From the NCBI GenBank assembly GCA_015492395.1, contig WGFD01000118.1:1-13193 (forward strand): 13,193 bases of DNA, read 5' to 3'. The DNA comes from Deltaproteobacteria bacterium. Its GTDB lineage: Bacteria; Desulfobacterota; GWC2-55-46; S146-70. A program made the position numbers and the translations under genes. The notes beneath the pieces are model-generated. The model saw only the letters and a program-made list of their open reading frames with translations. It made no database searches and had not been told where the DNA came from. Shown one piece after another: positions 9,894 through 13,193 of the stretch (its first letter is position 1; each line of letters starts with the position of its first letter).

Positions 9894-10352
9894 ATGATCG
9901 ACTATGATGACCTGATAAGGATAGATCTCTTTGATGACCTTACCGAAGAGGAGCTCAAGTCCATCCGGGAGATATGCAGCGAGGAGCGGTATGCCCCCGG
10001 GGAGTTTATCTTCAAAGAGGGATCCCAGGCCAAACGCCTCTACGTCCTGAAAGAAGGCAAGGTCTCTATAGAGATCCAGGTGGGTGACAATAAGCACCTC
10101 AGCGTATTTACCATATCCCAGGGTGCGGATCTCTTCGGATGGTCCGCCCTTGTGGAGCCATTTAAGTTTACAGCCTCTGCGCGGTGTGTCGATGCGGCTA
10201 CAGTCCTTGCCGTCGACGGGGTGAAGTTGATGGGCCTGATCGAGAAGGACTACCGTATGGGTTTCCTGATTATGAGGAGGATATTGAGATTCATATCGCA
10301 ACGTGTCAGGGATTCACGCCTCCAGCTCATCCACTGCTACTATGCCCGGTAG
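9894..10352 (+). CDS. Stand-alone cyclic-nucleotide-binding-fold protein without DNA-binding domain
   Basis: A 152-aa protein with a Crp-type beta-roll (about 10-110): DLFDDLTEEELKSI at the N-terminus, APGEFIFKEGSQAKRLYVLKEGKVSIE, then FGWSALVEPFKFTASAR in place of the phosphate-binding cassette. In Crp-like binders the cassette reads GE...R.A; here Glu is W83 and the Arg position is F92, so cAMP or cGMP binding is unlikely. A C-terminal helix (115-147) follows, but no helix-turn-helix. Such FGWSALVEP proteins are common in Deltaproteobacteria and may act as protein-interaction sensors; this one is unassigned. AGGAGG at 9883-9888, five bases before the ATG, fixes the start. A structured leader precedes it. 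The [FeFe]-hydrogenase maturation genes follow after 204 nt. Confidence 0.88.
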   Translation: MIDYDDLIRIDLFDDLTEEELKSIREICSEERYAPGEFIFKEGSQAKRLYVLKEGKVSIEIQVGDNKHLSVFTISQGADLFGWSALVEPFKFTASARCVDAATVLAVDGVKLMGLIEKDYRMGFLIMRRILRFISQRVRDSRLQLIHCYYAR

Positions 10353-10381
10353 GCCGGACGTTACAGTTTAAGTGCCGGCCT
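10351..10381 (+). terminator. Hairpin at the end of the CNB gene
   Basis: AGGCCGG (10351-10357) pairs perfectly with CCGGCCT (10375-10381) around a 17-nt loop, beginning inside the TAG stop codon. Only GTTT follows rather than a full T-tract, so termination would be incomplete. Confidence 0.3.
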
Positions 10382-10556
10382 GTTTCGGAAGATCGGCCGC
10401 GATCCATCGGACTGACAAAAAACACGGACGCGAGACATCGGGAAGCGGGGCCTGTCTGCCACGGGCAGGGATGATGCCGTAATTGGCTCGTATGCCACGA
10501 CAGGGAGTGGCTAGGCAACACCGCGGATGGACTTTTCAGCAGCCTTGATATAAGCC
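10382..10556 (+). promoter_or_regulatory. Hairpin-rich leader before the hypC-hydE gene
   Basis: Perfect short stems are GATCG-GCCG-CGATC (10391-10404), CTGCC-ACG-GGCAG (10456-10468) and GCCAC/GTGGC (10494-10498 with 10507-10511). CCTGTC (10451-10456) can also pair with GACAGG (10499-10504), competing with the others. No clear sigma70 or sigma54 promoter and no Shine-Dalgarno before the ATG at 10557 are visible. It does not match a riboswitch class I know. It shares GCCTGTCTGCC with the leader at 115-125. Confidence 0.35.
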
Positions 10557-11873
10557 ATGTGTTACGCTATACCAGCGAAAGTAATGGAGATAAATAAGAG
10601 AACGGCCGTTATCGACTACTTCGGTGTCAGGAGGGAGGCCCTCATTGACGGTGGAGAGGTAAAGGTTGGCGACTATGTCTTCGCCCAGGGTGGTTTTGTG
10701 GTAGAGGTAATCCCCGGCGGGGAGGCCCGCGATATCCTGGAGAACTGGAGGGAGGTTTTCTTAAGGCTGGAGGAGAGGGACAGGCGACTCTCCTCCAGCG
10801 CCGCTGGAACCGGGGGCGGAGATCCAGGGATATCCAGGATACTGGATGAGATGGAGGGTGGAAGGCCCGTTTCCGAGGATGAAATTCTCGCGCTTCTGAG
10901 CATCGATGGAGAGGAGAATCTGGAGATGCTCTATGACGCGGCAAACCGCCTGCGTCAGAGGGTGCATGGCAACTCATGCTGTGTCCATGGAATTATAGAG
11001 TTTTCCAATATCTGCGGGAATGACTGCGCCTACTGCGGAATCAGGAAGGAAAACAACGGCCTGAGAAGGTACAGGATGGAGCCTGATGAGGTGGTGGGGG
11101 TGGCAAGCAGGGCGGTCAACAACATGGGCTTCAGGGCGCTCGTATTGCAATCGGGTGAAGACGGTTACTATACGACCGGTGTCCTTGGAGGTATAGTGAG
11201 GAGAATCAGGGAGAGATGCGGGGTCCTCATCATATTGAGTATTGGCGAAAGATCGCTGGCCGACTATGAAGAGCTCTATAAGGCTGGGGCACGCGGTGTG
11301 TTGATGAGATTCGAGACATCCAGTCCGGAGATTTACGCCAGGATGCATGCCACCCTCGCTTACGGGAAGAGGCTGGAAATACTCGGCGGACTCAAGTCCA
11401 TCGGCTACATTATCGCCACCGGATCGCTCATAGGGTTGCCCGGCCAGGGTCCGGAGGACCTGCGCGGGGATATACTGCTGGCCGCTTCCCTGAAGACGGA
11501 TATGTACTCATTTGGACCCCTGCTGGCGCACCCACACACACCGCTTGCGGGGACTCCGGAAGTAGATCTCCATAAGGGAATGAAGGTAATAGCGGTAACC
11601 AGGCTTATTGATCCGAACGGCACCATATTGGTAACCTCCGCTATGGAACAGCTTTTCGGTCGAAGGGGGATGAAAATGGCATTGGAGAGCGGCGGCAACT
11701 CCATGATGATAAATCTGACCCCTTCCGAATACCGCCGGCACTACTCTATCTATCCAGGCAAGGGAGATGGTTCCGGAGGAATCAGGGAGGAGGTCGACAC
11801 CAAACTGGAACTTCTCCACTCCCTGGGCAGGGGACCTTTGGACATAGGAATGAAGACGGGGGTGATGCAGTGA
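10557..11873 (+). CDS. hydE: HypC-HydE fusion: [FeFe]-hydrogenase radical SAM maturase with N-terminal HypC domain
   Basis: A 438-aa protein in two parts. Residues 1-70 are a HypC/HupF domain: MCYAIPAKVMEI, DYFGVRREAL, VGDYVFAQGGFVVEVI and EARDILENWREVF. Cys2, which carries the iron synthon in HypC, is kept; the conserved His of the LVHxGF motif is Q44. A Ser/Gly-rich linker (about 78-91) leads to HydE (92-438). That part has a radical SAM cluster motif CGNDCAYC (C153, C157, C160), QSGED (198-202), GLPGQ (293-297), FGPLLAHPHTPLA, and a C-terminal RRHYSIYPGK with the tyrosines of the family. The optional C-terminal auxiliary-cluster cysteines of some HydEs are absent. HydE converts the HydG product, an Fe(CO)2(CN)-cysteine complex, into the precursor of the [2Fe] H-cluster. 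The start is fixed by the invariant MC; there is no Shine-Dalgarno. Stop overlaps hydG. Confidence 0.92.
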   Translation: MCYAIPAKVMEINKRTAVIDYFGVRREALIDGGEVKVGDYVFAQGGFVVEVIPGGEARDILENWREVFLRLEERDRRLSSSAAGTGGGDPGISRILDEMEGGRPVSEDEILALLSIDGEENLEMLYDAANRLRQRVHGNSCCVHGIIEFSNICGNDCAYCGIRKENNGLRRYRMEPDEVVGVASRAVNNMGFRALVLQSGEDGYYTTGVLGGIVRRIRERCGVLIILSIGERSLADYEELYKAGARGVLMRFETSSPEIYARMHATLAYGKRLEILGGLKSIGYIIATGSLIGLPGQGPEDLRGDILLAASLKTDMYSFGPLLAHPHTPLAGTPEVDLHKGMKVIAVTRLIDPNGTILVTSAMEQLFGRRGMKMALESGGNSMMINLTPSEYRRHYSIYPGKGDGSGGIREEVDTKLELLHSLGRGPLDIGMKTGVMQ

Positions 11874-13193
11874 GAAGGCCTGGGGAGATGATTCCATTCG
11901 GAGAGATCGGCCACCTCCTCGAGCGGGCAAGTGGAGCGTCCCCTGGGGAGGTGGACTCCATAATCCGTAAGGCAAGGTCACTCGAAGGGCTGACACCTTA
12001 CGAGACCGGGGTGCTGCTCTGTGCTAATGGCAAGGACGTTACCGGAGCCGTCTTTGAGGCGGCAAGAGATGTAAAGGAGGCCGTCTATGGCAGGCGGCTC
12101 GTCCTCTTCGCGCCGCTCTACCTTTCCAACCTGTGCGAGAACGACTGTCTCTACTGCGGATTCAGGCGTGGCAACAAGGAACTCGGCAGAAGAGTGCTGA
12201 CCCTTGAAGAGATAAGGAGTGAGGCCGAGGCAATCATAGAAGATGGCCATAAGAGGGTCCTGGTCGTAGCCGGTGAGGATAGAGAGAGATGCGGAATAGA
12301 CTATATTGAGAAGGCGGTCCGCGCCATATACAGTGTGGGGACTGGCGGCGGAAAGATCAGGAGAGTGAACGTCAACGTCGCCCCCCTGACGGAAGAAGGA
12401 TTCAGGCGCCTCAAGTCCATACACATAGGCACATACCAGCTCTTTCAGGAGACATATCACCCCGAGACCTATAAAAAGATGCACCCAAACGGCCCCAAGA
12501 GCGACTTTCATAACAGGCTTGCCGCCCTGGATATGGCGCAGGAGGCGGGAATAGACGACGTAGGCATGGGAGTACTCTTCGGACTCCATGACTACAGGTT
12601 CGAGGTCTTGGCGCTCGTCTACCACTCTCTCCACCTTGAGGCAAGATACGGCGTAGGGCCGCACACCATATCAGTTCCCAGGATAGAGCCTGCAAACAAC
12701 GCCCCTGTCTCTCTCTGCATCCCGTATGAAGTTTCCGACGACGACTTCATGAAGATAATAGCCGTTCTGAGGCTGGCCGTACCGTATACCGGCCTGATCA
12801 TTAGCACCAGAGAGCGGGCGGAGTTTAGGGACAGGCTCCTGGGTTTGGGTGTGTCGCAGATAAGCGCCAACTCACGGACATCACCAGGCGGATATACGCT
12901 TGAAAGCGGCGGCAGGCGGGAAGAGCAGTTCTCCATAGCTGACAAGAGGACCACGGAGGATGTCATAAGGGATATCTCAAGATACGGCTTTTCGCCCAGT
13001 TTTTGTACCGCCTGTTACAGGACAGGCAGGACCGGAAGTGAATTCATGGGCCACGCAAAACCTGGGGAGATCCAGAGATTTTGTCTTCCGAACTCGATCC
13101 TCAGCTTCAAGGAGTACCTCATCGATTACGGGAGCGATGATCTCAGAGAGATAGGCGATGGGCTGATAAAGGAACAGATAACCGGGATAAAAG
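11870..13193 (+). CDS. hydG: HydG, [FeFe]-hydrogenase maturase (tyrosine lyase), 3' end outside the window
   Basis: The 441 visible residues cover nearly all of HydG. This radical SAM enzyme cleaves tyrosine to p-cresol plus CO and cyanide and builds the Fe(CO)2(CN) synthon on an auxiliary cluster. The radical SAM motif is CENDCLYC (C89, C93, C96). Family stretches VNVNVAPLTEEGFR, GTYQLFQETYHPETY, GIDDVGMGVLFGL and GVGPHTISVPRIEPA follow. The C-terminal cluster motif C-X2-C-X22-C is complete (C379, C382, C405), which separates HydG from the related ThiH. Probably some 20-40 residues are missing at the right edge. GTG 11870 overlaps the hydE stop (GTGA), implying coupled translation; ATG 11888 is an alternative. 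HydF, the scaffold GTPase, and the hydrogenase itself are not in view. Confidence 0.95.
   Translation, partial: MRRPGEMIPFGEIGHLLERASGASPGEVDSIIRKARSLEGLTPYETGVLLCANGKDVTGAVFEAARDVKEAVYGRRLVLFAPLYLSNLCENDCLYCGFRRGNKELGRRVLTLEEIRSEAEAIIEDGHKRVLVVAGEDRERCGIDYIEKAVRAIYSVGTGGGKIRRVNVNVAPLTEEGFRRLKSIHIGTYQLFQETYHPETYKKMHPNGPKSDFHNRLAALDMAQEAGIDDVGMGVLFGLHDYRFEVLALVYHSLHLEARYGVGPHTISVPRIEPANNAPVSLCIPYEVSDDDFMKIIAVLRLAVPYTGLIISTRERAEFRDRLLGLGVSQISANSRTSPGGYTLESGGRREEQFSIADKRTTEDVIRDISRYGFSPSFCTACYRTGRTGSEFMGHAKPGEIQRFCLPNSILSFKEYLIDYGSDDLREIGDGLIKEQITGIK

What the first reader, a model, noticed from the sequence alone, without database searches (positions are those of the whole stretch)
10557..11873. 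HypC domain fused to HydE: a hybrid of [NiFe] and [FeFe] hydrogenase maturation
The sequence shows a near-complete HypC domain (residues 1-70, starting MCYAIP with Cys2) joined by a Ser/Gly linker to a full HydE. HypC is known to carry an Fe(CN)2CO unit through Cys2 in [NiFe] maturation. HydE is known to accept the Fe(CO)2(CN)-cysteine product of HydG, encoded next door. My inference is that the HypC domain is a tethered carrier or docking arm that captures the HydG iron complex and presents it to HydE, replacing free diffusion. I do not know of a described system of this kind.
Basis: partly seen in the sequence, partly recalled or inferred. Interest (0 to 1): 0.85.

Follow-up and report, generated by a model that had tools for sequence, protein, structure and literature searches.

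The report
Radical-SAM route to [NiFe] hydrogenase
Some bacteria and archaea appear to build the iron part of their nickel-iron hydrogenase with the radical enzymes HydE and HydG, borrowed from the unrelated iron-iron hydrogenase, and with a delivery domain fused to HydE; if true, this is a new way to make one of biology's oldest metal centres.

Summary
The fusion is real. Window 10557-11873 encodes a HypC domain (residues 1-83) joined to HydE, with HydG overlapping by 4 bases. It is not rare: all 119 other best-listed database relatives carry both domains.

The proposed role in [FeFe] hydrogenase is not supported. This genome has no detected [FeFe] hydrogenase, full-length HydF, HypD or HypF, and this is its only HypC, but it has a complete sulfhydrogenase-type [NiFe] hydrogenase with its protease. 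The pattern repeats in 14 of 14 fusion genomes profiled: [NiFe] large subunit 14/14; HypD, HypF, [FeFe] hydrogenase and HydF 0/14 each. Among 20 genomes with HydE but no fused HypC, 17 have [FeFe] hydrogenase. HydE splits into matching clades (100/99). In one relative the operon reads HypC-HydE, HydG, [NiFe] protease, HypA, HypB. In another, reported 100% complete, the large subunit nests among those of HypD-bearing sister genomes: same enzyme, swapped maturase.

Best explanation: HydG and HydE make the Fe-CO/CN unit from tyrosine, and the HypC domain delivers it to the [NiFe] large subunit, replacing HypCDEF. The chemistry is inferred. Nine Micrarchaeota-phylum genomes have [NiFe] subunits and neither route, which is unexplained. 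I found no description in the papers searched.

The parts
10557..11873 (+). HypC-HydE fusion protein, 438 aa
10557..10805 (+). HypC (HupF_HypC) domain, residues 1-83
   Evidence: Pfam PF01455 55.8 bits; aligns to solved HypCs 2z1c, 3vyr, 3d3r, 2ot2
10560..10562 (+). Cys2 codon, the Fe(CN)2CO-carrying cysteine in canonical HypC
   Evidence: motif found in 132 of 133 fusion N-termini, the other starting later; role in canonical HypC from PMC11565642 passages
10686..10688 (+). Gln44 codon, at the place of the histidine conserved in stand-alone HypC
   Evidence: Gln in 130 of 132 aligned fusions; His in 9 of 9 HypCs found beside HypD (10 loci looked at) and 4 of 4 solved HypCs
10824..11873 (+). 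HydE (radical SAM, TIM barrel) part, residues 90-438
11013..11036 (+). radical SAM cluster motif C153-x3-C157-x2-C160
   Evidence: sequence; the three Cys are invariant in alignment A1
11870..13192 (+). HydG, tyrosine lyase making CO/CN on iron; overlaps the fusion by 4 bases, open at the window's end
   Evidence: TIGR03955 498.3 bits over positions 34-445 of 470; CX3CX2C and CX2CX22C motifs present

Best explanation
[quoted passage not shown] HydG splits tyrosine and assembles an Fe(CO)2(CN)-cysteine synthon (established for its family). The HydE domain of the fusion accepts and processes that synthon, but instead of two being joined into the [2Fe] unit for HydF, the product is taken by Cys2 of the tethered HypC domain. 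The HypC domain then docks on the apo large subunit and delivers the iron unit, after which HypA/HypB add nickel and the protease trims the C-terminus. Shown here: the fusion, its neighbours, gene co-occurrence and exclusion, the two HydE clades, and the swap of maturases around one hydrogenase lineage. Inferred: every chemical step in this variant, the hand-over from HydE to Cys2, and how a 2 CO : 1 CN synthon becomes (or does not become) the usual 1 CO : 2 CN unit.
For: (1) Own genome, 93.4% complete: no match to [FeFe] hydrogenase or HypD, one HypC only, this one, HypF only as a partial match far below cut-off, HydF likewise, yet a four-subunit sulfhydrogenase-type [NiFe] hydrogenase with both Cys motifs and a maturation protease. 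(2) 14 fusion genomes: [NiFe] large subunit 14/14, both CxxC pairs in 14/14 (for the own genome, for 13); HypD 0/14 (35), [FeFe] 0/14 (37), HypF over cut-off 0/14 (38), HydF full length 0/14 (44). Controls: 15 other genomes of the same class, [NiFe] 15/15, HypD 15/15, HypF 14/15, [FeFe] 0/15; 20 genomes with HydE but no fused HypC, [FeFe] 17/20, full-length HydF 16/20. Own phylum, [NiFe]-bearing genomes: HypD 0/3 with fusion, 25/25 without, Fisher p 3e-4; HydE-bearing genomes: [FeFe] 0/14 against 17/20, p 1e-6. (3) G079 operon: HypC-HydE, HydG, HycI-type protease, HypA, HypB. (4) G322, reported 100% complete: its large subunit sits inside the clade of large subunits from HypD-bearing sister genomes (100/98), yet it has no HypD or HypF over cut-off and has the fusion plus HydG. 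(5) HydE tree: the 38 fusion rows and two HydEs from genomes with [NiFe] but no [FeFe] are split from 33 others at 100/99. (6) Literature passages: in canonical maturation HypC Cys2 holds Fe(CN)2CO and HypC alone is thought to deliver it to the large subunit (PMC11565642); HydG passes its synthon directly to HydE (PMC12752695). (7) Of the eight relatives longer than 470 residues that I checked, three (P0005, P0018, P0019) continue into HydG, i.e. HypC-HydE-HydG in one chain; in P0018 only 39 residues of HydG are matched.
Against: Nine of 20 sampled Micrarchaeota-phylum genomes without a HydE hit have a [NiFe] large subunit but no HypD and no HypF over cut-off; three more have only weak N-terminal PF00374 matches. 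So in that phylum lack of HypD is not informative, and a third route, a host supply or incomplete genomes must exist. Two genomes (G411, G413) have the [NiFe]-type HydE without fused HypC, and no HypC was seen in the 66 kb fetched from them. HydG does not split as HydE does: 13 of 15 [NiFe]-side HydGs group, but those of this window and G493 fall with [FeFe]-side HydGs. One HydE-only genome, G347, has neither [FeFe] nor [NiFe] nor full-length HydF. HydG's known synthon is Fe(CO)2CN, not Fe(CN)2CO. The His conserved in HypC is lost. In this genome the hydrogenase lies on another contig; HypA, HypB and HypE were not searched for genome-wide. The own-phylum contrast rests on three fusion genomes. 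No biochemistry.
Confidence: 0.82

Rival explanations
1. HydE/HydG supply only diatomics (CO, perhaps CN) or a partial synthon, and a still unrecognised protein replaces HypD/HypE/HypF to complete Fe(CN)2CO; the HypC domain works with that protein.
For: The ligand ratio mismatch (2 CO: 1 CN against 1 CO: 2 CN), and genomes with [NiFe] large subunits but neither route, leave room for unknown factors. HypE was not searched for.
Against: Beyond HydG I saw no gene recurring next to the fusion, but most neighbours were only compared with a small reference set, so this is weak; 42 HydE columns, the cluster cysteines among them, are conserved across both clades (two more at the trimmed end left out).
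Confidence: 0.1
2. One reading: the HypC domain is a tethered arm that captures the HydG complex for HydE in H-cluster assembly of [FeFe] hydrogenase.
For: HydG is adjacent; HypC is known to carry an Fe-CO/CN unit on Cys2.
Against: No [FeFe] hydrogenase in 14 of 14 and no full-length HydF in 14 of 14 fusion genomes; [NiFe] protease, HypA and HypB in the G079 operon.
Confidence: 0.03
3. The pair matures an unknown Fe-CO/CN enzyme and its co-occurrence with [NiFe] hydrogenase is incidental.
For: In most fusion loci no hydrogenase gene was seen among the neighbours.
Against: G079 operon and G452, where large and small [NiFe] subunits lie about 3 kb away on the other strand; 14/14 co-occurrence together with absence of HypD and HypF.
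Confidence: 0.04
4. Artefact of incomplete or mis-binned genomes: HypCDEF are merely missing.
For: Many are fragmented assemblies; hyp genes often cluster, so one gap could remove all. Nine Micrarchaeota-phylum genomes lack both routes.
Against: G322 is reported 100% complete in about 20 contigs and has neither HypD nor HypF over cut-off; 14/14 pattern in bacteria and archaea; the fusion itself is in all 119 other best-listed relatives.
Confidence: 0.02

Closest known systems
HydE (rSAM_HydE, TIGR03956; T. maritima HydE 7o1o, 8qmk)
   Different: Own clade; fused N-terminal HypC; clade-specific swaps, the sharpest being Arg (33 of 33 rows of the other clade; R64 of the tagged chain, R54 without the tag) to His144 (38 of 38 fusions plus G411 and G413); no HydF or [FeFe] hydrogenase in the genome.
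HypC of the HypCDEF pathway
   Same: Domain over Pfam cut-off; Cys2 kept.
   Different: Fused to HydE; no HypD partner found in the genome; the VH-x-GFA histidine is Gln in 130 of 132.
HydG (TIGR03955)
   Same: Over cut-off, both cluster motifs kept.
   Different: Found where there is no HydF or [FeFe] hydrogenase.
HydEFG pathway for the H-cluster
   Same: Two of three maturases.
   Different: Third maturase and the target absent.
HypX-type aerobic CO supply (name recalled; the formyl-THF route is mentioned)
   Same: An alternative source of a [NiFe] ligand.
   Different: Recalled: HypX supplies CO only and works with HypCDEF; here HypD and HypF are not found.

Membership tests
HydE family | HydE-type radical SAM TIM barrel with CX3CX2C | tested here: met
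   233.9 bits, below the NCBIfam equivalog cut-off 254.6 for the window's protein, 271.2 (above) for G079's
HypC family | HupF_HypC domain with N-terminal Met-Cys | tested here: met
HypC family | conserved histidine in the VH-x-GFA motif | tested here: not met
   Gln in 130 of 132 against His in 9 of 9 found beside HypD
HydEFG [FeFe] maturation pathway | HydF present | tested here: not met
   0 of 14 full length
HydEFG [FeFe] maturation pathway | [FeFe] hydrogenase present | tested here: not met
   0 of 14
HypCDEF [NiFe] maturation pathway | HypD present | tested here: not met
   0 of 14
HypCDEF [NiFe] maturation pathway | HypF present | tested here: not met
   0 of 14 over cut-off; weak partial matches only
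HypCDEF [NiFe] maturation pathway | HypE present | not tested
[NiFe] maturation in general | [NiFe] large subunit target with both CxxC motifs | tested here: met
   14 of 14
[NiFe] maturation in general | protease, HypA, HypB | tested here: inconclusive
   all three in the G079 operon; protease in the own genome and near G418's large subunit; HypA/HypB not searched genome-wide
[NiFe] maturation in general | delivery of an Fe-CO/CN unit to the large subunit | not testable with these tools
   needs biochemistry

The most novel reading that the evidence does not exclude
These [NiFe] hydrogenases carry a non-standard iron ligand set. Because HydG makes Fe(CO)2(CN), the HypC domain may deliver that unit unchanged, giving a Ni-Fe(CO)2(CN) site (or a mixed one) with all diatomics from tyrosine: a fourth kind of hydrogenase active site, assembled without carbamoyl phosphate.
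Probability: 0.2. Interest if true: 0.98.

Novelty: categorically new. Interest (0 to 1): 0.92.

Why it matters
[NiFe] hydrogenase cofactor assembly is taught as HypABCDEF-dependent, with cyanide from carbamoyl phosphate. The anoxic origin of its CO ligand is called elusive in a 2024 paper (PMC11565642, passages read). A pathway in which HydG, a known maker of both CO and CN from tyrosine, feeds a [NiFe] site through a HypC-HydE fusion would be a second, independent solution, would link two hydrogenase classes thought to be convergent (recalled), and would help explain why some archaea and bacteria with [NiFe] hydrogenase lack HypD and HypF. It is directly testable, and a two- or three-gene maturation set would be useful for heterologous hydrogenase production.

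Tried and rejected
Rejected: the H-cluster role (no target, no HydF in 14 of 14). Rejected: a rare oddity or assembly join (all 119 other best-listed relatives share the architecture). Tried without result: Rfam scan of the window at gathering threshold, no match; a genome-contig scan with a single sequence gave only 5 loci, one with the fusion; stand-alone HypC near HydE or the hydrogenase in G411 and G413, none seen in the stretches fetched; a HydG tree expected to mirror HydE did not. A search for a published role of Tm HydE Arg54 gave nothing relevant. Literature searches for prior description: (open-access PMC library only; most subscription papers and all bioRxiv preprints not covered; Greening et al. 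Cell 2024, recalled as 'Minimal and hybrid hydrogenases', is not held). PMC12727194 and PMC9431212 were seen as passages only and those passages do not describe it.

Choices that shape the counts: fusion status was read from N-termini for the 30 best loci (3 fusions); the N-termini of the other 35 hit genomes were not inspected. The 15 'HydE-only' genomes of the own phylum come from the top of that ranking (of 62 other genomes with a hit), not at random. The 15 class controls are all other same-class genomes listed besides G322; three of them (G054, G242, G378) have a weak hit (E 3e-21 to 6e-24) that I took for another radical SAM protein. The 20 Micrarchaeota-phylum genomes without HydE are the 20 listed of 285. 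G175's weak N-terminal PF00374 match (E 1.9e-5) was not counted as [NiFe]; counted, the own-phylum HypD contrast would be 0/3 against 25/26. Weak PF00374 matches of G398, G409 and G415 were not counted either. G675's HydF (306 bits, full length) was counted although just under the cut-off. The large-subunit tree leaves out the four group-4-like subunits and G303's. In one search the label HypC_HydE_own was by mistake a concatenation of 121 proteins, so its identities are not quoted; one search repeats this properly. One search failed and was redone.

Full report

How common. Of 2618 database hits the best 120 are listed; one is the window's own protein and the other 119 all carry PF01455 with PF04055. 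Names given by sources include Nitrospirota, Thermodesulfobacteriota, Omnitrophica, Altiarchaeota, Aenigmarchaeota, Woesearchaeota and Micrarchaeota. Of eight relatives longer than 470 residues that I checked, three (P0005, P0018, P0019) run on into HydG, P0018 for only 39 matched residues, so all three parts can sit in one chain. In a sample of 395 genomes of the own phylum, 65 have a hit; of the 30 best-scoring loci, whose N-termini I inspected, three are fusions (the window's own, G322, G079). In 301 genomes of the Micrarchaeota contig's phylum, 16 have a hit and 11 are fusions.

Which hydrogenase. The window's genome (93.4% complete) gives no match to [FeFe] hydrogenase or HypD, no second HypC, no HypF over cut-off and no full-length HydF. 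It does have a [NiFe] hydrogenase on contig C226 whose alpha, beta and delta subunits best match sulfhydrogenase models and whose gamma subunit matches related ones, all below those models' cut-offs: beta, gamma, delta and alpha in a row, then a maturation protease over cut-off. The alpha subunit keeps RICGIC and DPCISC.

Is this general? I profiled 69 genomes (HydF: 34 of them). Fusion genomes (14): [NiFe] large subunit 14, HypD 0, [FeFe] 0, HypF 0, HydF 0. In all 14 the large subunit has both CxxC pairs (for the own genome, for the rest); in G418, G422, G423 and G424 it is of a group-4-like type (group recalled, from the motifs), of which the one scanned, G418's, also matches Complex1_49kDa. 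Genomes of the same class without the fusion (15): [NiFe] 15, HypD 15, HypF 14, [FeFe] 0. Genomes with HydE but no fused HypC (20, of which 15 in the own phylum): [FeFe] 17, full-length HydF 16, HypD 10, HypF 10. Among the 30 non-fusion genomes profiled in the own phylum, HypD is present exactly where a clear [NiFe] large subunit is (25 with both, 5 with neither, G175's weak match not counted). Fisher tests are (HypD among [NiFe]-bearing genomes of the own phylum, p 3e-4; [FeFe] among HydE-bearing genomes, p 1e-6); they ignore relatedness and the way genomes were picked.

Genomic context. In G079 the fusion and HydG are followed on the same strand by a HycI-type hydrogenase protease, HypA and HypB: the late [NiFe] maturation set, with HypC-HydE and HydG where HypCDEF would be expected. 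In G452 [NiFe] large and small subunits lie about 3 kb from the fusion, on the other strand. In the other fusion loci HydG is the only neighbour I recognised: it follows in 14 of 14 (in G452 it is cut by the contig end; in G422 a usual start codon lies only inside the frame). Most other neighbours were compared only with a small reference set.

A natural swap. In a tree of 36 large subunits G322's sits inside the clade formed by sister genomes that have HypD (12-row clade 100/98; 15-row clade 100/99), and the window's own is sister to that clade (98/96). G322 is reported 100% complete, has no HypD and no HypF over cut-off and has the fusion and HydG. The same enzyme lineage is thus matured by HypCDEF in the sisters and, it seems, by HydE/HydG here.

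Specialisation is in HydE. HydE sequences divide at 100/99 into one side with 38 fusions plus G411 and G413 (which have [NiFe], no [FeFe], HypD, HypF or full-length HydF, and an unfused HydE) and another with 33 unfused HydEs; 18 of these 33 come from genomes profiled, and 17 of the 18 have [FeFe] hydrogenase. Forty-two columns are conserved on both sides, but a few positions are fixed differently, above all Arg in 33 of 33 against His in 38 of 38 at own residue 144, on the first barrel strand nine residues before the first cluster cysteine. HydG shows no such clean split: 13 of 15 [NiFe]-side HydGs group together, while the window's and G493's fall with [FeFe]-side HydGs. I read this as HydG making the same synthon for both pathways and being exchangeable, with HydE deciding its fate; that is inference.

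The HypC domain. The Met-Cys-x3-Pro start (Val for Met in G426) was found in 132 of 133 fusion N-termini, the exception starting later. The histidine of the VH-x-GFA motif, present in 4 of 4 solved HypCs and in 9 of 9 HypCs found beside HypD (10 loci looked at), is Gln in 130 of 132 fusions. This fits a HypC that keeps its cargo cysteine but has lost HypD as partner.

Mechanism. From passages seen: HydG makes [Fe(cys)(CN)(CO)2] from two tyrosine turnovers and hands it directly to HydE, which reduces it and is held to form a dimeric product that goes on to HydF (PMC12752695); in [NiFe] maturation HypC Cys2 and HypD Cys41 hold Fe(CN)2CO, HypC alone is thought to deliver it to the large subunit, HypA/HypB then add Ni, and the anoxic source of CO is unknown (PMC11565642). 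Combining these with the gene data, I propose that HydE passes a mononuclear Fe-CO/CN unit to Cys2 of its own HypC domain, which delivers it to the apo large subunit. Untested: the hand-over and the ligand ratio. HydG's synthon has two CO and one CN, the classical [NiFe] site one CO and two CN; either ligands are exchanged or these hydrogenases have a different site.

Against. Nine Micrarchaeota-phylum genomes have [NiFe] large subunits (DPCxxC in 9 of 9, RxCGxC in 7 of 9) but no HypD, no HypF over cut-off and no HydE hit at E 1e-30. In that phylum HypD is rare whatever the genotype (1 of 36 profiled), so the HypD contrast rests on the own phylum (3 fusion genomes against 25). HydE-only G347 has no hydrogenase match of either class, and G175 has [FeFe] without full-length HydF. 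HypE, and HypA/HypB genome-wide, were not searched. The fusion and the hydrogenase lie on different contigs in the window's genome. I know of no experiment.

Membership and novelty. It is a HydE and a HypC by sequence, but the system meets neither pathway's definition: no HydF or [FeFe] hydrogenase, no HypD or HypF. I found no description of such a system in eight searches of open-access papers; most subscription papers and all bioRxiv preprints were not covered. I rate it a new kind of hydrogenase maturation pathway, at 0.82 for 'HydE/HydG with HypC serve [NiFe] maturation in place of HypCDEF', and lower, about 0.55, for the exact hand-over proposed.

Noticed in passing
L124-L132 (G399, G400, G403, G404, G406, G407, G410, G414, G416): Micrarchaeota-phylum genomes with a [NiFe] large subunit but neither HypD/HypF nor a HydE hit: incomplete genomes, host supply or a third route.
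   Followed up: partly
L106, L107 (G411, G413): HydE of the [NiFe] clade without fused HypC, with HydG next door, in genomes with [NiFe] and no [FeFe], HypD, HypF or full-length HydF: possibly a split version with HypC elsewhere.
   Followed up: partly
P0005, P0018, P0019: HypC-HydE chains that continue into HydG, a triple fusion (P0005 matches HydG over 259 residues and is named partial by its source; P0018 over 39).
   Followed up: partly
window 9894-10352 (+): A 152-aa protein with a cyclic-nucleotide-binding domain (PF00027) as its only Pfam match, 204 bases upstream of the fusion; possible sensor for the operon.
   Followed up: no
window 10353-10556: Intergenic stretch before the fusion's start that by eye holds short inverted repeats; no Rfam family matches at gathering threshold.
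   Followed up: partly
Micrarchaeota-phylum genomes G396, G398, G401, G405, G408, G409, G415: [FeFe] hydrogenase domain present without a HydE hit at E 1e-30: maturation source unknown.
   Followed up: no
L041:6721-8406 (-): A 561-aa ORF that by eye looks like a radical SAM protein, on the same contig as the [NiFe] hydrogenase; not identified further.
   Followed up: no
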